Source: Metridium senile | Lineage: Eukaryota; Cnidaria; Anthozoa; Actiniaria; Metridiidae | Reading direction: 5' to 3' | Assembly: GCA_949775045.1 (NCBI GenBank) | Contig: OX459100.1 | Span: forward strand, 12,704,447 to 12,768,446 | Length of the DNA: 64,000 bases | Part shown: piece by piece, positions 11,110-47,068 of the stretch | Numbering within the stretch: the stretch's first letter is position 1 | Layout: every line of letters begins with the position of its first letter | The notes under the pieces: model-generated | Seen by the model: only the letters and a program-made list of their open reading frames with translations | Database searches by the model: none | Told to the model about the DNA's origin: nothing | Position numbers and translations under genes: made by a program

Positions 11110-11119
11110 TTATCTTAAT

Positions 11120-12411
11120 TTATGATCAGTATCAATATAATTATTATTATCATCATTAATATTATTATTATCATCATTAATATTATTATTATCATCATTA
11201 ATATTATTATTATCATCATTAATATTATTATTATCATCATTAATATTATTATTATTATCATTAATATTATTATTATTATCATTAATATTATTATTATCAT
11301 CATTAATATTATTATTATCATCATTAATATTATTATTATCATCATTAATATTATTATTATCATCATCAATATTATTATTATCATCATTAATATTATTATT
11401 ATCATCATTAATATTATTATTATCATCATTAATATTATTATTATCATCATTAATATTATTATTATCATCATTAATATTATTATTATCATCATTAATATTA
11501 TTATTATCATCATTAATATTATTATTATCATCATTAATATTATTATTATCATCATTAATATTATTATTATCATCATTAATATTATTATTATCATCATTAA
11601 TATTATTATTATCATCATTAATATTATTATTATTATCATTAATATTATTATTATCATCATTAATATTATTATTATCATCATTAATATTATTATTATCATC
11701 ATTAATATTATTATAATCATCATTAATAATATTATTATTATCATCATTAATATTATTATAATCATCATTAATAATATTATTATTATCATCATTAATATTA
11801 TTATTATCATCATTAATATTATTATTATCATCATTAATATTATTATTATCATCATTAATATTATTATTATCATCATTAATATTATTATTATCATCATTAA
11901 TATTATTATTATCATCATTAATATTATTATTATCATCATTAATATTATTATTATCATCATTAATATTATTATTATCATCATTAATATTATTATTATCATC
12001 ATTAATATTATTATTATCATCATTAATATTATTATTATCATCATTAATATTATTATTATCATCATTAATATTATTATTATCATCATTAATATTATTATTA
12101 TCATCATTAATATTATTATTATCATCATTAATATTATTATTATCATCATTAATATTATTATTATCATCATTAATATTATTATTATCATCATTAATATTAT
12201 TATTATCATCATTAATATTATTATTATCATCATTAATATTATTATTATCATCATTAATATTATTATTATTATCATTAATATTATTATTATCATCATTAAT
12301 ATTATTATTATCATCATTAATATTATTATAATCATCATTAATATTATTATAATCATCATTAATATTATTATTATCATCATCAATATTATTATTATTATCA
12401 TCATCAATAGT
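11120..12411. repeat. 21-bp minisatellite, ~60 copies
   Basis: Head-to-tail array of attattattatcatcattaa-type 21-bp units, with rare single-base variants (tcatta/ttatta, attataatc). The unit is a multiple of three and lacks stops in several frames, so long open frames run on both strands: an Asn/Asp/Ile seven-residue repeat on the minus strand, and Ile- or Met/Ile-rich repeats in other frames. These are a by-product of the repeat, not genes. Confidence 0.95.
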
Positions 12412-12638
12412 GATGGTATTCAAAATATGGTTGTGCGTTGGTTTCATTTCACTTTGTCAACACAGTGAGCAGGGGCGGATTTAGGAGGGTGTCCCCCCAC
12501 TGGGCACCTACTAACACTTTAAGGCCCTTCCATTCGGACACCCCCCTGACAAATTTCTGGATCCACCCCTGATGAGAAATATTTTAATTTCGAGCTTTTG
12601 ATTAACTGACCCATCTTCAGCTAGGTAAACATGGTAAA

Positions 12639-25821: not shown

Positions 25822-26915
25822 TACCCTGGTTATCTAATTTTTTAACTCTTTTTAAAAGCCGCTAAGCGACAAACGAGCTACGAAGCAGCGAGTCGTCGTC
25901 TAAGCCTCTGGTAGGAAGCGCCGTGAATCACATTTCCAAGCTTAATTGAATTGTCGATCAAAGCAAAATGTTCCAATTAACTTTAACCAATCACAGATCC
26001 CCGTGGTGATTTTTTACTTAAGGGAGGGGACGTTAGTAGATAGTGTGCTTTACAATATCTGGGGGAGATACTCAAATAATTTTTTTGCATGCATACACGT
26101 GCCCAATGTAAATAAACATTCAGCCGCCCGAATGACAACCAGTAGTAAAAGTAATTTAAACTCGAAAGCTGGGGCTGGCAAACACAAACGAATATTCTCC
26201 TCGTTTGATGGCGCTTTGGTCAAGGTCATCTGCACTCAAACTTGTCGCTCGTAGGCCGTATCTTTCAAGTTCAAGTATGTGGGAGTCCACAAGCGATCGT
26301 AGTGGGCAAATCACAATGACGATTGCATTCCTTGGATATGGATAGCCTCGTAGAAACAACTGTCTGCAAAGATCTGGTAAAAGTTGAAAAATCAACGATT
26401 TTCCTTGGCCTGTAGGCAATATGGTGAACACGTCCTTCTTGTTTAACAAAGCAATAAGGGATGTCATTTGCTCTTCACATAAAGTCTCGATGTCTTTAAA
26501 TCGTTCTTCTAGAGCAACTGATAAAATACTATTAAAAACCTCTTCGATTATACAATGGGTCATTGAGAAATTTTTGCTGTAAGAACTAAAATTATCGATA
26601 ACTACTATGTGAAGATACGAAAACACTAACAACAGAGATTGTGCAATTCATACTTACCCCCCTACCCTTATTACAATAGAGTTTGACAAATCAAAAACAG
26701 GACTTAAAATCAGCCAATTGGTGCGCCAAAACAATTTTGCTCAATCTTTAATTCTATTGGCGCGGCCCGATCAATCAACTGCCACTTCCTACCAGAGGCC
26801 TAGACGACGACTCGCTGCTCCGCAGCTCGCTCTCCGCTCTGCGGTTCGAAATCGCCGCTTCGCGGCTCAAGAAAAGATAAGATAAGAGTTAGTCAAGCCT
26901 CTGGTGACCAGGGTA
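25822..26915. mobile_element. TIR element with captured helicase fragment
   Basis: The ends are taccctggt and accagggta, flanked by a perfect 9-bp direct repeat cattcttag (25813-25821 and 26916-26924). Subterminal inverted blocks follow (gcagcgagtcgtcgtctaag with tagacgacgactcgctgctc; ctctggtaggaag with cttcctaccagag). A 9-bp target duplication is typical of Mutator-like elements. It has no transposase, and its only coding-like content is a RecQ-type helicase piece. Confidence 0.8.
26156..26632 (-). pseudogene. RecQ-like helicase N-terminal fragment
   Basis: The 158-codon frame carries a Walker A motif (ILPTGQGKSLIFQLLP), a preceding Gln-containing motif (LCEEQMTSLIALLNKKDVF) and motif Ia (VICPLRSLVDSHI). 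It stops just after YSFVFASP, where a RecQ protein would enter the DEAH-proximal region. It therefore lacks the DEAH box, motifs III-VI and the RQC domain, and cannot be an active helicase. It lies entirely inside the 25822-26915 TIR element. RecQ-like fragments of this kind are numerous in coral and anemone genomes (general knowledge). Confidence 0.8.
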
Positions 26916-35610: not shown

Positions 35611-35625
35611 CTAGTGATATATTTA

Positions 35626-35958
35626 CGGAAGCCCAGTAGGCTCAACACAAATAAAATTATATTGAAGCAAATAAAAAAAGGAACACATACAACAAAAAAA
35701 CTAACTGCAAAAAAAACCCACACACACGCAAACTAAAAAAAATTGCAACAAATAAAAAAATGATATAAGCCCAGAAGGCTCAACACAAATAAAAATAAAT
35801 GTATTGCACCGTAAAAATATTTTACAAAAATAAAGATAAATCCAGCAATCAAAAAAGAAACCTTGCTACACAAATGTAGTTACTCGCAATAAAAAAAAAA
35901 AATAATAATAAAACATAGTCCACAAAGAAAAAAACATTACACGCAAACAAACAAAAAT
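35626..35958. repeat. Left terminal inverted repeat
   Basis: It pairs with 41074-41408 with scattered mismatches. Within each arm the block agcccag(a/t)aggctcaacac followed by aaataaa occurs twice, about 140 bp apart, so the arms carry a subterminal duplication that may be transposase-binding sites (inference). Confidence 0.9.
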
Positions 35959-36028
35959 TGCTCGCAACGACAAAGAAGTCTGGGTACAAGACACAAAGAC
36001 CGCTGACTCCGTGCAGTTTGAGCTCAAA

Positions 36029-37262
36029 ATGGCGGACAGTGCTTTGCGTACGATAATTGAATATTATTTTCACCTTGGGTATGAAAACAGGGTTATTATT
36101 GATTTTTTACGTGAGCAACATGGCACAGTAATAAGTTTGGCAACTTTAAAACGAAGGCTAAGGGAATATGGTCTGCAAAGAGGGGGAAATTCCATTTACA
36201 ATAATCAACTGAAGAATTTGATTCAACGTATCAGTTCAGGTCCTGGGGAGCTTCTAGGATATAGAGCTGTTTGGCATTCATTTCGAGTGCAATACCATGT
36301 ACATGTTCCAAGACAGCGTGTTGCCGAAATTTTGCGCGAGTTGAATCCTCAAGCCACTCAGCAAAGAGCAAGCAGGAGGCTAATAAGGCGAAGATATTCA
36401 ATTTCTGGACCAAATTTTTGCTGGCATATCGATGGTAAGCTTATTTATTATTATAAATTAAAAAATTATTAATTATTATTTTAATGTATGTTATGTGTTT
36501 TTATTTGAAGGTTATGATAAGCTTAAACCGTTCGGATTCCCAATACACGGGGCAATTGATGGGTACAGCCGGAAAATCCTTTGGCTTAAACTGGCCAGGT
36601 CTAACAACAAACCAGAAGTCATTGGTAATTATTTTCTTGGCTATGTTAGAGAATGTTCTGGATGTCCTATTCTTGTACGAACAGACTGTGGCACAGAAAA
36701 TGGAATTGTGGCTGCTATGCAATCATATTTCAGACAAGAGAGTACTGATGAATTTGCTGGTGAAAAATCACATAGATATGGGACATCACCAGCAAATCAA
36801 AGGATTGAATGTTGGTGGTCATCTCTAAGACGAGGAAGGACATCATGGTGGATAAATCATTTTAATAGCATGACAAATAGTGGAGTATTGAATAAGGGCA
36901 ATGAACAACATATGGAATGCCTGTGGTTTTGTTATCAACACTTACTTGAAGAAGAACTGAGCAATGTGAAACATCACTGGAACAGCCACCGAATACGTCC
37001 ATCAAGGTATGGTACTGTACCTGGGATACCAAATGTTCTTTATCACTTACCTCATCGTTCTCGTGGCATTGATTGCAAGGTAGCCATCCAAGCTGACAAG
37101 ATAAATGCAATGGAGAGATATGTACAAGATGATGATGGTGGTGCATCTTTGTATCAAGAGTATTTTGATTATGTTATGCAAAATGAGATGCTTCAATATC
37201 CAAGCACACCTGATGAAGCATTCAATCTCTTCAAAACCTTAATAGTTGTTGCAGAAAGGTGA
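36029..37262 (+). CDS. Integrase-core (DDE) transposase
   Basis: Two exons, 36029-36434 and 36511-37262, join in phase (GAT G|GT) to give 385 aa. The start is the ATG of MADSALRTIIEYYF; an upstream GTG is not used in eukaryotes. The N-terminus looks like a helix-turn-helix (FLREQHGTVISLATLKRRLR, about residues 26-45). The catalytic core is retroviral-integrase-like with an Asp in CWHIDGYDKL, an Asp in RTDCGTENG and a Glu in NQRIECWWSSLRR, a complete DDE set. The C-terminus (WNSHRIRPSRYGTVPGIPNV) is conserved in a family annotated as 'integrase core domain' in fish and cnidarians, perhaps the IS3EU group (uncertain). No frame break is seen, so it may still be active. Confidence 0.88.
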
Positions 37263-38309
37263 ATTTGACTGAGTTGACAATAGATATGACTTAATAATTA
37301 AATACATATAGTAATCCAATTAAAAAAAAAAGTCAAGCTTTTTTTTATAACACCTTGTAAACATAATTATATCCAAATTGACTTTATTTCTGAATCAACA
37401 TATAACTTGATTTGATGACAATGCAACTGAATTTTAAGCAAGAACCTATTGATCAATGGGTTATTGTAGTAAAGACATGCTTTGTTTTGAACAGTATTAT
37501 TTTGGTCTCTAACTGTTAGTGTGTAATTAAGGAACATTACACATCTATTGATATGGTTAGAACAGTTGAATATTGTATTATAACTGTATGTAATATTTTG
37601 TTTTATCACATAAAAAGAGTGATTAGGTTTAACTTGTTGAACCTGAAAATAGTTCAAAAGTACAGCTGTCTTTACTACTATAAAGATATTGTCAGTGATT
37701 ACAGTTCACAGGTTTTAAAGAAAGATCACAAATGTACTACCCAAATGGTCATGTTGTCATACTATGACCAAGTATAAGGGAGTAGTTAATCATATTATCA
37801 ATAACATGGATGACAGAATAATTAAAAAAGATAAAAGGTGTGTGTTAAAGCCTCATCTTCACCCAAGATCCTCTGAATTATTTTTGTGTACTGTTACACA
37901 AAAATATATTATTGTGTACAAAAAGCCTGGTAATTTATTAGTCTTATTTTAATCCTTGATGTAGTACTTAAAAAAAGAATTCTTATTTCAGAACAAAAAA
38001 AATTGACAAAAAAGATTCTGGGTGAACAGAGGCATTTAATAGCACAATTGGTTCAACTACATACACTTTTCATTTAACAATATTAAGTTCAAGAATGAAA
38101 TGACTTAATTGTTATTGTGGATCATAACGTAATCATTAGCAAACAGCAACTAGAAGTAACGCAAAGACATATGCTGTATTTAACAACATAATAATATGAA
38201 TCTTGGTCACCAAAGTGTGCAACTACAAGTCATATTTAACCTTATCTCATTTGGTAACTTGTGAGTAACAGTGCCCATTTCAGGGTGTGTTAAAACTATA
38301 TGGGTTCAC
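37263..38309. other. Spacer between convergent transposon genes
   Basis: AT-rich DNA between the stop of the transposase and the stop of the ligase. It presumably contains both 3' UTRs. No other feature is seen. Confidence 0.5.
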
Positions 38310-40951
38310 CTAAACTTTCCCAAACCCAGGGGAATTCAACATACAGAACAGAAATTCTTCTTTGAATGACCCAAAACTTAATAATTTTTCAGTAACTGGA
38401 AAATACAACACATTTGAGCAAGTGCTAACATACAACTTCCGGTCTCCTTCGTGCATGAAGACAATAGAAGGCCTGGGGTGCAAACCCAAGGGTGGGATAT
38501 TTTTGCTTCCAGTAATGAAAGCTAATACAGCTTCAAGTGAAATGTGTACTGTACTGTAAGAAAGAGTATTGCCATCATAAATTTGAGTTTTTACCAGACC
38601 TTGCTCTACATCCTCTAAAAATTGATTCCAGTAAAATAGAATGGTCTTTTCATTTGTGTTTTTGTTACTTCCCTCGGGAGATAAATGAACAGAAAATAGG
38701 CTATCTATTAAGTCAGCCTTTAAAGCACTAGTAGTAAATTGTAAAATCTCTCTAGCCTCATGAGGGTGATCCCTTACGAGTTGTAAAACCCCAACATTAT
38801 CTAACCCATTAACAAATTGGTCAATTTCACAAAGGCAATGTGCTAATGTATAGTGTATTGTTGCTGCTCTTAAAATCTCAGTTTACTGGTTTTGTATACC
38901 CCATCTCAGGCAGTAATTCAGCAAAATTAGATGCAACTCTTTCTCCAAAAAGGTGTGGTTGTTCTATGCCATTTAGCTCTTTTAGTTTTTCCTTCACAGA
39001 TTTATTGGGAATGCTATCAAGAGAACACTTGACATACTTCACATTTCCATATAATATATAGTCAACAACAGGGGGACACAAGAACTGAGGGCCCACACTA
39101 CCATTAACTATTGCTAAAGCACAACACAAACCGTATTTAAAATAGTCGTTTTGCTGGAGCGCAACTAAATTATGAGCAAACACTTTACCCTTTCCCTCTT
39201 CTCCAAGGAATAATGATGAAGAATAAACTTCATTATGGAGAAGGGAAAAAAATTCCCTTTTGGGACCCCCATGGTCTACCCCTGCCTCACCCACAAACTC
39301 AATTTTGACATAACTGTTTTCTTGCAAATGTTCTTTCTGTATTCTGTTGCACTTTAGTTTTACGTCTTGCCACATCGAATTCCTTCTCACTTTAAACCTT
39401 ATATAGGACCTCTCCTCCATTTCTTTTGCTTTTGTTTCACATAAGGCTTCAAGATCATCTGAAAAAGTGTGACTTGTGGTTGTAGTTTCAGTTTCGACTT
39501 GACTGGCTGACCAACCCAAAGGTTCTACATCTTGATCTGTTTCATCAGAATCATAAAGGATATCCCCATACTGACGATGGAGATACATATAGTCGAGGTT
39601 GCTTGCAGATGGCTGAGAAAGAGTGGATGAGCTTGATGCTAACACAGATGAGCCTCCTGAATCACTTGATGGTTTCCCAGCCTTGAGAACAAATTCAGAT
39701 ATATAATATGATTGTGTGTTTTTTTTTTAGCTTAAAGGGGCACTGTCGCGAGCTGTGCATGTGCGGGAACTCGCTTGTCATCTTGAAAACGTTGACCTTT
39801 AGAGCGAGCCAGTTTGTTTTGAAATTTCCATCGATCGTATCTCAGCCATCCTTAATGGTATGCACTTCAAATTTGTTTTATAAACTAACAATTTATAGAA
39901 AAGTACTTTAGAACTTCTATTTTGACTTTTCAAACTTATTTGTGCGAAATATTTTCGATGGATTTGTGAGTTGGTCGAATGTAATATAAAGCCAGCGGAG
40001 AAGAAGCTAATTTTGCAAAAGAAGCATTTGATTTCACAAGAAAAGGCTTTTGAACACAACAAAAATACATTGTTCATTTAAACCGATCAATAATTATGGT
40101 TGCAAGATATTTCTGACTTTCTCAAGCAAAAACAAACTAAAATCTACAATCAAAACAAATCATTCGGGCATCTCTAGTTTGCACATGCGCATCTCATGAC
40201 AGTGTCCCTTTAAAAGTACTGCATATAACTACTTTCAGGGATTGACAATTTATCCTAGTCAAAAGTCAACGCAACCTGTAATTAGGCTCTAACCTGGGAA
40301 ATCATCACATTTGAGGTTCTTGCCAGGGAAGTACTCACAACTGTAGAGAACACTTTATTACAGGTGGGACATTTCGCTTCTGAGTCGCAAGTAGCCAGCC
40401 ATTCCTTTAGACAGACATCATGAAAAATGTCTGAACACGTGTTAGGTGTAGCAGCAATTTCTTCTGTTGTTATTTTCTCCAAACAGATTGTACAGGAGTG
40501 TGTAGGCACCACGGCCTGTTTATTTTCACTTGAAGCACAACCCTACAAATATTATTGCAAAAACTTAATGGAATATTATTCCAATATAATGGAAAAAGAT
40601 TATTCATTGTGGTGAATAATATAAAAAGGTATGTATATATTCTATTCGTTTTTCTCACAAAAACCGCGACGTTTTTATCTGCTCATCGACTATCGCATGA
40701 TGAAGACTTGTAGTTTGCAGTCAAAACGTCGAGCAATAACTCATTAATAATTCCATCAATTACACATCAATTTCCTCTGCTTTGTAAAAGGACAGCAATA
40801 GTAAACAAAGCCTTAAAAGCCTAAAACATTGGTCATTTGCTGCTCTTTCCTTGTTTTAGCAGTAGCTTACCTGATCTTCAAATGGACTTTTCATTAAATC
40901 CTCGTCTTCACTACTTTCCGTCACGTCGATAACTGGCATTTCAGAGAACAT
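38310..40951 (-). CDS. RING-HECT E3 ubiquitin ligase (transposon-borne)
   Basis: Exons 40951-40871 (MFSEMPVIDVTESSEDED), 40542-40294 and 39681-38310. Exon 2 is a RING-H2-like finger (CTICLEK, then CSDIFHDVCLKEWL and KCPTC); the usual first His of the central pair is Asp. Exon 3 holds a Ser-rich stretch, an acidic linker and a full HECT domain: N-lobe IEFVGEAGVDHGGPKREFF and LPEMGYTKP, C-lobe HISLEAVLAFITGSKNIPPL, and the catalytic Cys in YVSTCSNVLYFP (codon 38418-38420), ending NSPGFGKV. HECT enzymes carry ubiquitin on that Cys before transfer. The layout resembles G2E3-like ligases, which are highly multicopy in fish and cnidarians. One surplus base at about 38881-38886 throws the frame, so a naive reading stops at 38878 and loses the C-lobe. 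This is either a pseudogene lesion or a sequence error. Confidence 0.85.
39736..40209. mobile_element. TTAA-flanked MITE in the ligase intron
   Basis: Ends aggggcactgtc and gacagtgtccct are flanked by TTAA on both sides (39732-39735, 40210-40213). Subterminal gtgcatgtgcg/gcacatgcgca are also inverted. TTAA duplication suggests piggyBac- or Kolobok-type mobilisation. It inserted into the transposon after that had arrived. Confidence 0.8.
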
Positions 40952-41073
40952 CAAGTCCGTTTTTGTGCAAATATAAAGAGTGATTCTTGTTATACGGGCG
41001 TCCAACCTCCTCCTTGTATTTTTTCTAACACAAAGGCATCGTTGGTGCCTGGCAAGTACTTGACCTCACTGCC

Positions 41074-41408
41074 ATTTTTGTTTGTTTGCGTGTAATGTTT
41101 TTTTGTTTGTGGACTATGTTTTATTATGTTTTATTTATTTTTTATTGCGAGTAACTACATTTGTGTAGCGAGGTTTCTTTTTTGATTGCTGGATTTATCT
41201 TTATTTTTGTAAAATATTTTTACGGTGCAATACATATATTTTTATTTGTGTTGAGCCTTCTGGGCTTCTATCATTTTTTGATTTGTTGCAATTTTTTTTT
41301 GTTTGCGTGCGTGTGTTTTTTTTGCAGTTAGTTTTTGTTGTTGTATGTGTTCCTTTTTTTATTTGCTTCAATATATTTTTTATTTGTGTTGAGCCTTCTG
41401 GGCTTCCG
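41074..41408. repeat. Right terminal inverted repeat
   Basis: Inverted partner of 35626-35958; the outer end is ctgggcttccg followed by TA. The ligase ATG lies about 120 bp inside it. Confidence 0.9.
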
Positions 41409-41410
41409 TA

Positions 41411-44394: not shown

Positions 44395-46200
44395 TAGCCA
44401 ACAAATTCAATGAGTGGTCTAAAATCACCTCGGACCCGTGGATTCTTGAAACTATCCAGGGTTACCGGCTGGAATTTGAGTCGACTCCATGGCAAAATGG
44501 TCCGCCTAAGACTCCCAATTATTCGGAGTCTGATTGCAGAAGTTGGCAAACTTCTGTCAAAAGGCGCCATTGAGCAAGTGATCTCACGGGCCAGGTGAAT
44601 TTGTCTCCACATTGTTTTTGGTCCCTAAAAAATCGGGTGATTTTAGACCAGTCATTAACTTGAAGCCGTTCAATAAATTTGTGCAACGCGCTCATTTTAA
44701 AATGGAGAGCATTGATCTTCTTAGCAGTTTGCTACAACCAGGGGATTATTTAGCCTCAGTTGATCTCAAAGATGCATATTTTAGTGTGAATATGGACCCT
44801 CGAGACCGAAAATATTTGAGGTTTTGTTGGAACTCTATTGTTTACGAGTTCACCCGCTTATAGCAATTCAAGTGATCAATGCTCTCAACATGCACGGGAA
44901 GTATGCGAGTTGTTGACGCGGGTTGGTTTTACCGTTAACAATATTAAATCGCAGCTTGTTCCATCACAACAAATTCAATTTCTTGGGTTTGTGGTGGATT
45001 CTGTTTCAATGACTTTGTCACTTCCAGCCGAGAAGGTTGAAACTATTATAAATTCTTGTCAAGGTCTTTTAAAGAACCGTTGTCCGTCGATTCGAGATAT
45101 CGCTCACGTGACTGGTTTATTAGTTTCAGCCTTCCGTGCCGTGAAATATTTACGCTTATTTTATCGCTCCATCGAATTCTGCAAATCGAATCTTATTTCT
45201 ATGGGTGCGAGTTATGAGGATCAAGCTAGTTTGAGCGCTACTGCTTGCGCCGATTTAAGTTGGGTAATTCATAATATTAAACATTTGAACGGTTTACCCA
45301 TCGTTCCTCCTGCTGTAGACTTGTATATTGAAAGTGATGCCAGCCTATCGGGCTGGGGGGCTTGTTGCAATAGCAGTGAGACCGGCGGTCTTTGGTCTCG
45401 TGTAGAAGCTAGTTATCACATAAACTATCTAGAAACCCTGGCTGCGTTTTTTTCTCTGAAATGCTTCGCAAGTAATGCTAGAGGCAAGCATGTCCAACTA
45501 AAGCTCGATAATACTACAGCGGTATTTTATATGAATAACATGGGTGGCATACGATCGCCCTCGTTAAATCGTCTGGCTAGGGAGATTTGGACATGGTGCA
45601 TATCCAAGGACATTTGGGTGTCGGCTGTTCACGTGCCTGGCGTGGATAACGACATAGCGGATTTTAGGTCACGCCATTTCAGTATTAATACTGAGTGGAG
45701 TTTGCACCCAAGTGTCTTTGAGTGGCTATGTCAGCGGACTTTTGAGCCTGACATTGATTTATTTGCGTCCAGGCTGAACGCGAAAGTGACTAGGTTCGTG
45801 TCCTGGTCACCAGATCCGTTTGCTTTTGCATGCGATGCATTTTCATTAGATTGGAGTAATTTTGAACCGTATGCTTTTCCTCCTTTCAGCCTGATCCCAA
45901 GAGTGCTGACTTATTTACGATTACACAGTGTTCAGAAGTTCCTCCTTGTAACTCCAGTGTGGCCATCGCAGGCGTGGTACCCAGCTGTGCTTCGGATGTT
46001 AATAGATCGTCCAATTCTCCTGCCAAGGTGGCCGAACCTTCTGCAGCTGCCCCATTCGTGTCAACTGCACCCGCTACGAGATCAAATTCAACTTGCCGCT
46101 TGGACGCTGTCAGGAACAGACTGTGCACCCAGGGAGTTTGTCGAAGGGCAACCGAGGTCATCTGTGAATCTTGGACCAAGGGAACGAGGAAACAGTACGA
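44395..46200 (+). pseudogene. DIRS reverse transcriptase-RNase H, RT core deleted
   Basis: RT motifs are present up to VPKKSGDFRPVINLKPFNKF and YLASVDLKDAYFSVNMDPRD, then YEFTRL runs directly into YSNSSDQCSQHAREVCELL. The segment that should hold the template-grip and the Y-x-D-D active site is absent, about 35-45 codons, with a frame change at 44861. Two further frame changes occur between 44500 and 44620. The DIRS-type RNase H is intact, with acidic residues in YIESDASLSGWG, INYLETLAAF, KLDNTTAVFY and DNDIADFRSR. It is non-functional as an RT. Confidence 0.88.
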
Positions 46201-47068
46201 GCCTGCGTGGTCCAAATGGGAGAGCTGGTGTATTGAACGGTCGGTTGATCCTTTTCAAGCAGCTGTGAACATTTTTCTGAATTTCCTGAACCATCTGTAT
46301 GAAGACGGAAAGGCTTATAGCACGATAAATACTTACCGTTCTGCAGTATCTAGTACTATAGAAGCAGTCACAGGAAAGCAGGTTGGATGTCATCATCTGG
46401 TGTCAAGATTTATGAAAGGGGTGTTTGTTGGGCGACCCCCTCAATCTAAGTACTCTACAGCATGGGACGTAAGCCAAGTAACAGAGTACTTACAGACTCT
46501 GTGCCCATTATCAGGCTTATCATTAAAGGAACTGACATTGAAAGTAGTTACACTGTTAGCGTTAGTGTCAGCTCAGAGATGCCAATCTCTTCATTTTCTG
46601 AACTTAAATAATATGTCTGTTATGGAAAAGCAAATTGTTTTTGTTATTAAGGATCGCGTGAAAACATCACGCCCAGGAAAGGACCACCAAAGGATTGTTA
46701 TTAGTAGTTTTTCTGACGATATACGTCTGTGTCCTTTCACTCATTTAAAAGAATACCTTAAAAGAACTGAGTCTTTAAGGTCTAATAATGATTATTTATT
46801 CATTTCATATTGTAAACCTTACAAAGAGGTGTGTTCTAGTTCTATTGCCAGATGGCTAAAAACTGTTTTATCGCTTTCGAATATAGACACTACAATATTC
46901 AAGGCGCATAGTTATCGAAGCGCAGTAGCCTCTAAAGCGCTACTTAAGGGAGCTTCTGTCTCAGATATAATGAAACTGGCAGACTGGTCGAGAGTTTCGA
47001 CATTTAATAAATATTATCGAAAACCTATTATTGGTTGTAATACGACAAGTAACGTTGTTTTGTTATAG
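45959..47068 (+). CDS. DIRS tyrosine recombinase
   Basis: It overlaps the end of the RT-RNase H frame, as is usual in DIRS elements. The first in-frame codon shown is a GTG, so the true start is unclear; good coding starts by about residue 30. An N-terminal core-binding domain (WTKGTRKQYEPAWSKWESWC) is followed by the catalytic domain with Arg in LVSAQRCQSL, HxxR in KAHSYRSAVA, a Trp in LADWSRVSTF at the second His position, and the nucleophile Tyr in FNKYYRKP. The frame is open to its stop. This enzyme integrates the circular DNA copy without staggered cuts. It is the best-preserved gene of this copy and may still be active in trans. Confidence 0.9.
   Translation: MAIAGVVPSCASDVNRSSNSPAKVAEPSAAAPFVSTAPATRSNSTCRLDAVRNRLCTQGVCRRATEVICESWTKGTRKQYEPAWSKWESWCIERSVDPFQAAVNIFLNFLNHLYEDGKAYSTINTYRSAVSSTIEAVTGKQVGCHHLVSRFMKGVFVGRPPQSKYSTAWDVSQVTEYLQTLCPLSGLSLKELTLKVVTLLALVSAQRCQSLHFLNLNNMSVMEKQIVFVIKDRVKTSRPGKDHQRIVISSFSDDIRLCPFTHLKEYLKRTESLRSNNDYLFISYCKPYKEVCSSSIARWLKTVLSLSNIDTTIFKAHSYRSAVASKALLKGASVSDIMKLADWSRVSTFNKYYRKPIIGCNTTSNVVLL

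What the first reader, a model, noticed from the sequence alone, without database searches (positions are those of the whole stretch)
35626..41408. A DNA transposon that carries its own RING-HECT ubiquitin ligase
Two genes, a DDE integrase-type transposase and a RING-HECT E3 ligase, lie convergently between one pair of ~333-bp inverted repeats, each starting close to an end. A transposon-borne E3 could ubiquitinate the transposase, silencing factors or repair proteins, and would explain why G2E3-like ligases are so multicopy in fish and cnidarian genomes. I do not know of a description of this pairing, but cannot rule one out.
Basis: partly seen in the sequence, partly recalled or inferred. 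Interest (0 to 1): 0.9.

Follow-up and report, generated by a model that had tools for sequence, protein, structure and literature searches.

The report
Transposons carrying their own ubiquitin ligase
This stretch is an old, damaged copy of a jumping DNA element that carries a ubiquitin-ligase gene beside its transposase gene; nine related elements in the same genome hold both genes between matching ends with exact insertion footprints, so the ligase travels with the element and likely helps or protects its jumping.

Summary
Window 35624-41410 is one DNA transposon: 338/340-bp inverted repeats (94% identical, TACGG..CCGTA), an open 385-aa DDE transposase and, convergent to it, a RING-HECT E3 ligase. 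This copy has no target duplication and its ligase is decayed. The pairing is not a one-off: in the same 389-Mb genome, 60 of 103 HECT-type loci found lie within 12 kb of such a transposase (0.9 expected) and 59 of the 60 are convergent. Families A and B give ten two-gene elements; nine have exact 6-bp target duplications. Ends, duplications and transposase fit the known IS3EU superfamily; fungal IS3EU elements are published with a convergent alpha-kinase plus TET/JBP gene, but I found no paper joining IS3EU with HECT. In a family B element the 421-bp repeats contain both start codons, so transposase and ligase share their first 20 residues, half a zinc ribbon. Likely function (untested): ubiquitination at the transposon ends, of the transposase complex or of host proteins bound there. 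Against an essential role: five related elements without a detected ligase also have exact duplications, and gene trees are not congruent between families.

The parts
35624..35961 (+). Left terminal inverted repeat, starts TACGG
   Evidence: 324 of 336 aligned columns identical to the right repeat, 6 gap positions
41071..41410 (-). Right terminal inverted repeat, ends CCGTA
35628..35662 (+). 35-bp motif (GAAGCCCAG.AGGCTC...) at the left tip, repeated about 138 bp further in (35766-35800) and at both matching places of the right repeat (41234-41268, 41371-41406); possible transposase binding sites (inferred)
36029..36434 (+). Transposase exon 1: HTH region (HTH_21; weak Clr5 match below cut-off) up to the first catalytic Asp
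36511..37262 (+). Transposase exon 2: rva_4 integrase core with the second Asp and the Glu; open reading frame
40871..40951 (-). Ligase, remnant of the first exon; about 480 bp of upstream sequence, mostly coding (zinc ribbon and N-terminal domain in the C8 copy), are missing here
40294..40542 (-). Ligase RING exon (C..C / C.D.FH..C / C..C)
38884..39681 (-). Ligase HECT N-lobe exon, ends in a frame break; identified by its relatives, no Pfam match on its own
38310..38882 (-). Ligase HECT C-lobe with STCSN motif and C-terminal GFGKV
39732..40213 (.). 482-bp MITE-like insert (TTAAAGGG.CACTGTC ends) nested in a ligase intron; not part of the system

Best explanation
It is a DNA transposon of the IS3EU type whose second gene, convergent to the transposase, encodes a RING-HECT ubiquitin ligase that is copied with the element, and the ligase is predicted to act at the transposon ends, most likely by ubiquitinating the transposase complex or host proteins bound there. 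Shown: one pair of repeats encloses both genes; the same pairing recurs, convergent, at 59 HECT-type loci near transposases of many divergent families; two families have two-gene copies with exact 6-bp target duplications. Shown in one family (B): both reading frames begin inside the inverted repeat, so the two proteins share 20 identical N-terminal residues. Inferred: the repeat serves both genes as promoter, both proteins are made together and share a docking module, and the ligase then clears the transposase complex after insertion or removes host silencing or repair proteins there. The window copy itself is probably inactive as a source of ligase.
For: Anatomy. Census: 103 HECT-type loci, 60 within 12 kb of a transposase of this family (0.9 expected), 59 convergent, at 58 transposase loci. 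Family B: four elements with paired repeats (listed as 100% over 388 bp at all 8 ends), both genes, matching 6-bp flanks in 4 of 4 (in B2 they are TTTTTT inside a T run, so that one is weak). Family A: six elements with both genes, 5 of 6 with exact 6-bp duplications. Shared N-terminus encoded by the 421-bp repeat of B3. Catalytic-type Cys in 20 of 21 ligases that cover the C-lobe (one has Ser). A family that the searches left unpaired also carries a divergent convergent HECT gene. Ligase model matches HECT domains (HUWE1, Foldseek E 3.7e-14); transposase model matches MuA, IstA, TnsB. In other public assemblies, perhaps of the same species, near-identical transposase (P0001) and ligase (P0121) both have a longest contig of 5124 bases.
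Against: No activity, expression or substrate was tested. 17 of 59 near-full-length transposase loci had no convergent HECT within 12 kb in the searches (16 unpaired, 1 tandem; one of the 16 was inspected and did have one). Five related 3-5-kb elements without a detected ligase have exact duplications (5 of 5), so the ligase is not strictly needed in cis. Substitutions between close copies give no clear purifying selection on the ligase (dN/dS 0.43 for C6/C1, 0.98 for B/C7b; window against C4 13 nonsynonymous and 1 synonymous, against C1 4 and 2). Gene distances are not congruent between families. The shared N-terminus was seen in family B only; family A lacks it. This copy has no target duplication.
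Confidence: 0.72

Rival explanations
1. The ligase counters host silencing or innate immunity in the cell at large (degrading repressors), without acting on the transposase or the element ends.
For: Fungal IS3EU elements carry TET/JBP genes that are proposed to help transposons escape methylation (PMC12730594, abstract and passages). In family A no common N-terminus of the two proteins was seen.
Against: Repeat-encoded zinc-ribbon start shared by both proteins in family B suggests action at the same place as the transposase.
Confidence: 0.35
2. The ligase is a passenger host gene captured once and carried without a role.
For: Elements without a detected ligase have exact target duplications (5 of 5 tested); weak or no purifying selection between close copies; this copy's ligase is broken.
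Against: 59 convergent pairs with transposases 29-100% identical to the window's; no stops in the matched ligase parts of all ten family A and B elements; catalytic-type Cys kept in 20 of 21 ligases.
Confidence: 0.12
3. The convergent pair is a chance neighbour or a nested insertion of a separate ligase element.
For: The window copy has no target duplication.
Against: 0.9 pairs expected, 60 seen, 59 convergent; two-gene copies with outer duplications; no long inner repeats around the ligase.
Confidence: 0.01

Closest known systems
[quoted passage not shown] PMC12730594, passages)
   Same: TA..TA termini (window TACGG..CCGTA), repeats longer than 30 bp, 6-bp target duplications (in families A and B), integrase-like DDE transposase; no HHCC-type zinc domain was matched
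   Different: No ligase is described: the words HECT and ubiquitin do not occur in the main text of either paper
Rust-fungus IS3EU with TET/JBP and alpha-kinase genes (PMC12730594, passages)
   Same: A second enzyme gene in opposite orientation to the transposase
   Different: Kinase and dioxygenase instead of a RING-HECT ligase
RAG-like (RAGL) transposons (PMC7204232, passages)
   Same: Two convergent genes between inverted repeats; the RAG1 ring zinc dimerisation domain has E3 activity
   Different: E3 domain is inside the transposase; no HECT; 5-bp duplications; another transposase family
G2E3-like and other HECT E3 ligases
   Same: RING-type finger plus C-terminal HECT, catalytic-type Cys, C-terminal GFG
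   Different: Transposon-borne; N-terminal zinc ribbon and an unnamed N-terminal domain (family B), a different N-terminus in family A, CUE in some relatives (P0127, P0129)

Membership tests
IS3EU | TA..TA termini (TAYGG..CCRTA in the fungal families) | tested here: met
   Window TACGG..CCGTA; other families start TACGG, TATGG or, in family B, TACGA, which departs from TAYGG
IS3EU | 6-bp target site duplication: families A and B and B-type relatives | tested here: met
   10 of 10 B-type elements (9 by script, 1 read by eye; B2 lies in a T run) and 5 of 6 family A elements
IS3EU | 6-bp target site duplication: window copy | tested here: not met
   TATATT against CCATCT, and no other register. 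It is the only copy of its family with both ends in hand, so loss and absence cannot be told apart; I file the group, and this copy only as IS3EU-type by its ends and transposase
IS3EU | Integrase-like DDE transposase, no HHCC, HTH-like N-terminus | tested here: met
   HTH_21 and rva_4 matched, no HHCC-type zinc domain among the matches, DDE residues; model of relative P0006 matches MuA/IstA/TnsB/integrases
IS3EU | Transposase falls in the IS3EU/GingerRoot clade | not testable with these tools
   No Repbase sequences at hand
IS481EU | Target duplications of about 4, 15 or 25 bp | tested here: not met
   6 bp in the related families; definition from PMC10045372 passages
HECT E3 ligase | HECT fold with catalytic Cys near the C-terminus | tested here: met
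   Profile, fold and TC motif for relatives; the window copy has the motif but is frame-broken and its C-lobe is 2 bits under Pfam's cut-off
HECT E3 ligase | Ubiquitin transfer activity | not testable with these tools
   No assay
G2E3 proper | N-terminal PHD-type fingers (recalled) | tested here: inconclusive
   Best match of the finger is zf-RING_2; a PHD match in B3 is weaker and under its cut-off
RAG-like transposon | RAG1-type transposase, 5-bp duplications | tested here: not met
   rva_4 core and 6-bp duplications in related families

The most novel reading that the evidence does not exclude
A whole lineage of animal IS3EU transposons is a two-protein machine: transposase plus RING-HECT ligase. 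In its family B form the inverted repeats themselves encode the promoter, start codon and zinc-ribbon tip of both proteins, so every change at the ends retunes binding sites and both proteins together, and the ligase is aimed at the transposase complex on the ends, acting as a built-in disassembly and host-clearing enzyme. These elements, not host gene duplication, are the source of most HECT-type loci in this genome.
Probability: 0.33. Interest if true: 0.9.

Novelty: new variant of a known kind. Interest (0 to 1): 0.8.

Why it matters
It would give a direct way to ask how eukaryotic transposons use the ubiquitin system: a compact two-gene element with near-identical copies and exact duplications could be tested in cells. 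It also explains why many HECT-type loci of this genome are multicopy (59 of 103 found sit in such pairs), warns that genes annotated as G2/M phase-specific E3 ligase-like may be transposon genes, and offers a pool from which ligases could be domesticated.

Tried and rejected
Viral contigs gave no relatives. Prokaryote genome contigs gave one 30%-identical transposase in a contig labelled a Myxococcales MAG; its frames were listed and it was not followed further. Contig-length matching of transposases (120 listed of 1517) and ligases (24 contigs) gave two shared lengths, 5124 and 8092 (0.13 expected); only the first, backed by 96-98% identity to the window's genes, is used as evidence. Selection tests on close copies had too few substitutions to decide. 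Congruence failed across families: over all 16 rows, close copies included, Mantel r is 0.78 (p 2e-4), but with one row per family (11) r is 0.10 (p 0.18), and with 8 families 0.07 (p 0.32), so I claim co-inheritance within families only. One clade of four families (C2_265, C10_134, C1_585, C12_77) appears in both trees. Seven further pairs were left out of the matrix because too little ligase was matched. The search for the window's left flank elsewhere did not complete, so why this copy has no duplication is open. Ten paper searches: none of the listings joins IS3EU with HECT (0 papers); lists were cut at 15-20 titles. Repbase itself could not be searched.
Full report
What is in the window. 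The element runs from 35624 to 41410 (5787 bp). Its ends are TACGG and CCGTA. The inverted repeats are 338 and 340 bp, 324 of 336 aligned columns identical, and each holds two copies of a roughly 35-bp motif about 138 bp apart. The transposase starts 68 bp inside the left repeat and is open over its two exons (385 aa, D-58-D-40-E). Pfam gives HTH_21 and the rva_4 integrase core. On the other strand lies a gene with a RING finger and HECT lobes, the two genes tail to tail with 1.05 kb between their stop codons (37262 and 38310).

State of this copy. The flanks TATATT and CCATCT do not match, and no exact match of 4-30 bp was found with either end shifted by up to 6 bp. The ligase frame breaks near 38883 where P0121 and the C4 copy read on. 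In copy C8, about 480 bp between the ligase and the right repeat encode a zinc ribbon and an N-terminal domain (frame-broken in C8 itself). In C4 part of that domain is present and no right repeat was found in the stretch fetched. In the window this stretch is gone. So the window copy is a relic as far as the ligase is concerned.

Copies of this family. A search of the same genome (G000, 389,276,800 bases, 169 contigs) with the left repeat gave 7 matches. Two are the window's own repeats; three other loci match at 91-96%; two match weakly (74% over 133 bp, 80% over 69 query bases). C4 has transposase and ligase at 98% with a 1187-bp insert in the ligase; C1 has the left 3.4 kb (transposase and ligase 3' part); C8 has only the right part (ligase 5' exons). 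All 4 good loci, window included, hold ligase sequence. The weak locus L012 gave no match to either gene; the other weak locus was not inspected.

The pairing genome-wide. The transposase core gave 150 scored matches of 243 candidates (139 loci after clustering). P0122, a RING-HECT relative, gave 69 matches (77 of 105 candidates scored), and the Pfam HECT profile 121 (129 of 141 scored). Clustered, these are 103 HECT-type loci, host HECT genes included. 60 lie within 12 kb of a transposase locus (0.9 expected if placed at random). 59 of these are convergent, at 58 transposase loci. The one tandem case is the strongest Pfam HECT match of the genome and looks like a multi-exon host gene (inferred). 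43 loci are alone, among them the C8 relic and probably the host HECT genes. Of 59 near-full-length transposase loci the script counts 43 as paired, which includes the tandem case, so 42 are convergent and 17 are not. One of the 17, C9:137890, was fetched and does have a convergent, more divergent HECT gene (PF00632 E 9e-4, below cut-off; profile of my ligase alignment 5.7e-9). Counts are lower bounds because the tool scores only the best candidates.

Mobility with both genes. Family B: four elements, C2:10995984-11005113, C2:13051439-13058918, C2:39841627-39850690 and C7:11535876-11544969, 7.5-9.1 kb, with repeats listed as 100% identical over 388 bp at all 8 ends, 3.3 kb of the transposase side at 99.55-99.94%, both genes without stops in the matched parts, and equal 6-bp flanks in 4 of 4. 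One of these, B2, is TTTTTT within a run of T and is weak evidence by itself. Family A: six two-gene elements of about 9-10 kb, no stops in the matched parts; five have exact duplications, the C13 copy does not at either of two candidate left ends. So nine of ten family A and B two-gene elements have exact 6-bp duplications. Ten B-type elements were tested in all, and all ten have the duplication, one of them (C7b) read by eye because the script's pattern missed it. Five of these ten are B1-B4 and C7b, whose transposase is in pieces; the other five (3-5 kb) have no ligase that the searches detected. Family A also has shorter paired repeats, about 2.8-6.9 kb apart, at places where neither gene was listed.

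A shared start. In the B3 element the two ends are identical for exactly 421 bp, and an ATG stands at position 361 of both. The transposase and the ligase therefore begin with the same 20 residues, MPFCAYCGTEILSNTGRFCH, and then part: KC in the transposase and SC in the ligase close the zinc ribbon. The 388-bp query, which covers the first nine codons, matches at all 8 ends of the four elements; the ligase side was read in B3 only. In family A, with repeats matching at 96% over 563 bp, no zinc ribbon was seen and the proteins start differently. That the repeat holds one promoter serving both genes is inferred.

The ligase. B3 gives the fullest gene: zinc ribbon (weak Pfam match, 0.008) and N-terminal domain, RING (zf-RING_2 E 3.4e-9), HECT (E 2.7e-7). 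Among 21 ligases covering the C-lobe, counted by eye from the sequences after the script, whose pattern missed three that have Cys, 20 have Cys at the catalytic place and P0141 has Ser. P0125, P0126, P0143, P0144 and P0145 do not reach it and were dropped from this count. Not all of these ligases are known to lie in transposons. The AlphaFold model of P0122 (mean pLDDT 72.8; the first 170 residues, RING included, mostly under 50) matches HECT domains of HUWE1, SMURF2, UBR5 and E6AP. The transposase model of P0006 (74.4) matches MuA, IstA, TnsB and retroviral integrases.

Mechanism. Shown: joint carriage and joint insertion. Inferred: a HECT ligase made together with the transposase, in family B with the same zinc-ribbon tip, would be placed at the element ends. 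There it could ubiquitinate the transposase complex, so that it is cleared after strand transfer, or host proteins that block the ends. I give the end-directed model about 0.5, a host-wide anti-silencing role about 0.35, and a passenger without role about 0.12; that the ligase is a regular gene of these transposons I hold at 0.97. The 0.72 of the best explanation weighs the firm part and the inferred part together.

Comparison with the literature. IS3EU has been in Repbase since 2013 with TA..TA ends and usually 6-bp duplications (PMC10045372, section 3.3 read). TET-positive IS3EU families of rust fungi end TAYGG..CCRTA and have an alpha-kinase gene opposite to the transposase with TET/JBP between (PMC12730594, passages). 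RAG-like transposons are convergent two-gene elements (PMC7204232, passages). No paper in the held library has both IS3EU and HECT. Hence: known superfamily, new kind of second gene as far as I could search.

Limits. No expression data. Distances between families disagree for the two genes, which may reflect saturation (many protein differences of 0.5-0.8) or exchange of ligases between families, as described for TET/JBP in fungi.

Noticed in passing
L110 (G000 C2:39841600-39850720): Both genes of a family B element start inside the 421-bp inverted repeat, giving transposase and ligase the same first 20 residues (half a zinc ribbon).
   Followed up: partly
window 44820-47068: A tyrosine-recombinase frame (PF00589, E 9.3e-12) preceded by an open frame that looks by eye like a DIRS-type reverse transcriptase/RNase H; probably a DIRS-like retrotransposon downstream.
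   Followed up: no
window 39732-40213: 482-bp MITE-like element with TTAAAGGG.CACTGTC ends nested in the ligase intron.
   Followed up: no
window 11110-12468: About 1.3 kb of short tandem repeats, open in several frames on both strands.
   Followed up: no
L114 3536-7349: A family missed by the HECT searches has a divergent HECT gene and a 461-aa upstream frame with no Pfam match, convergent to an open transposase.
   Followed up: partly
G000 C13:10439389-10442258, C2:45402966-45405731, C16:2006397-2009558 and others: Paired family A repeats 2.8-3.2 kb apart with neither gene listed: likely non-autonomous derivatives.
   Followed up: no
P0127, P0129: Related ligases with a CUE domain before HECT.
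   Followed up: no
L001 2016-2474: A 30%-identical transposase in a contig labelled Myxococcales MAG; possibly eukaryotic contamination.
   Followed up: no
window 26156-26647: DEAD-type helicase fragment (E 4.8e-8) left of the transposon.
   Followed up: no
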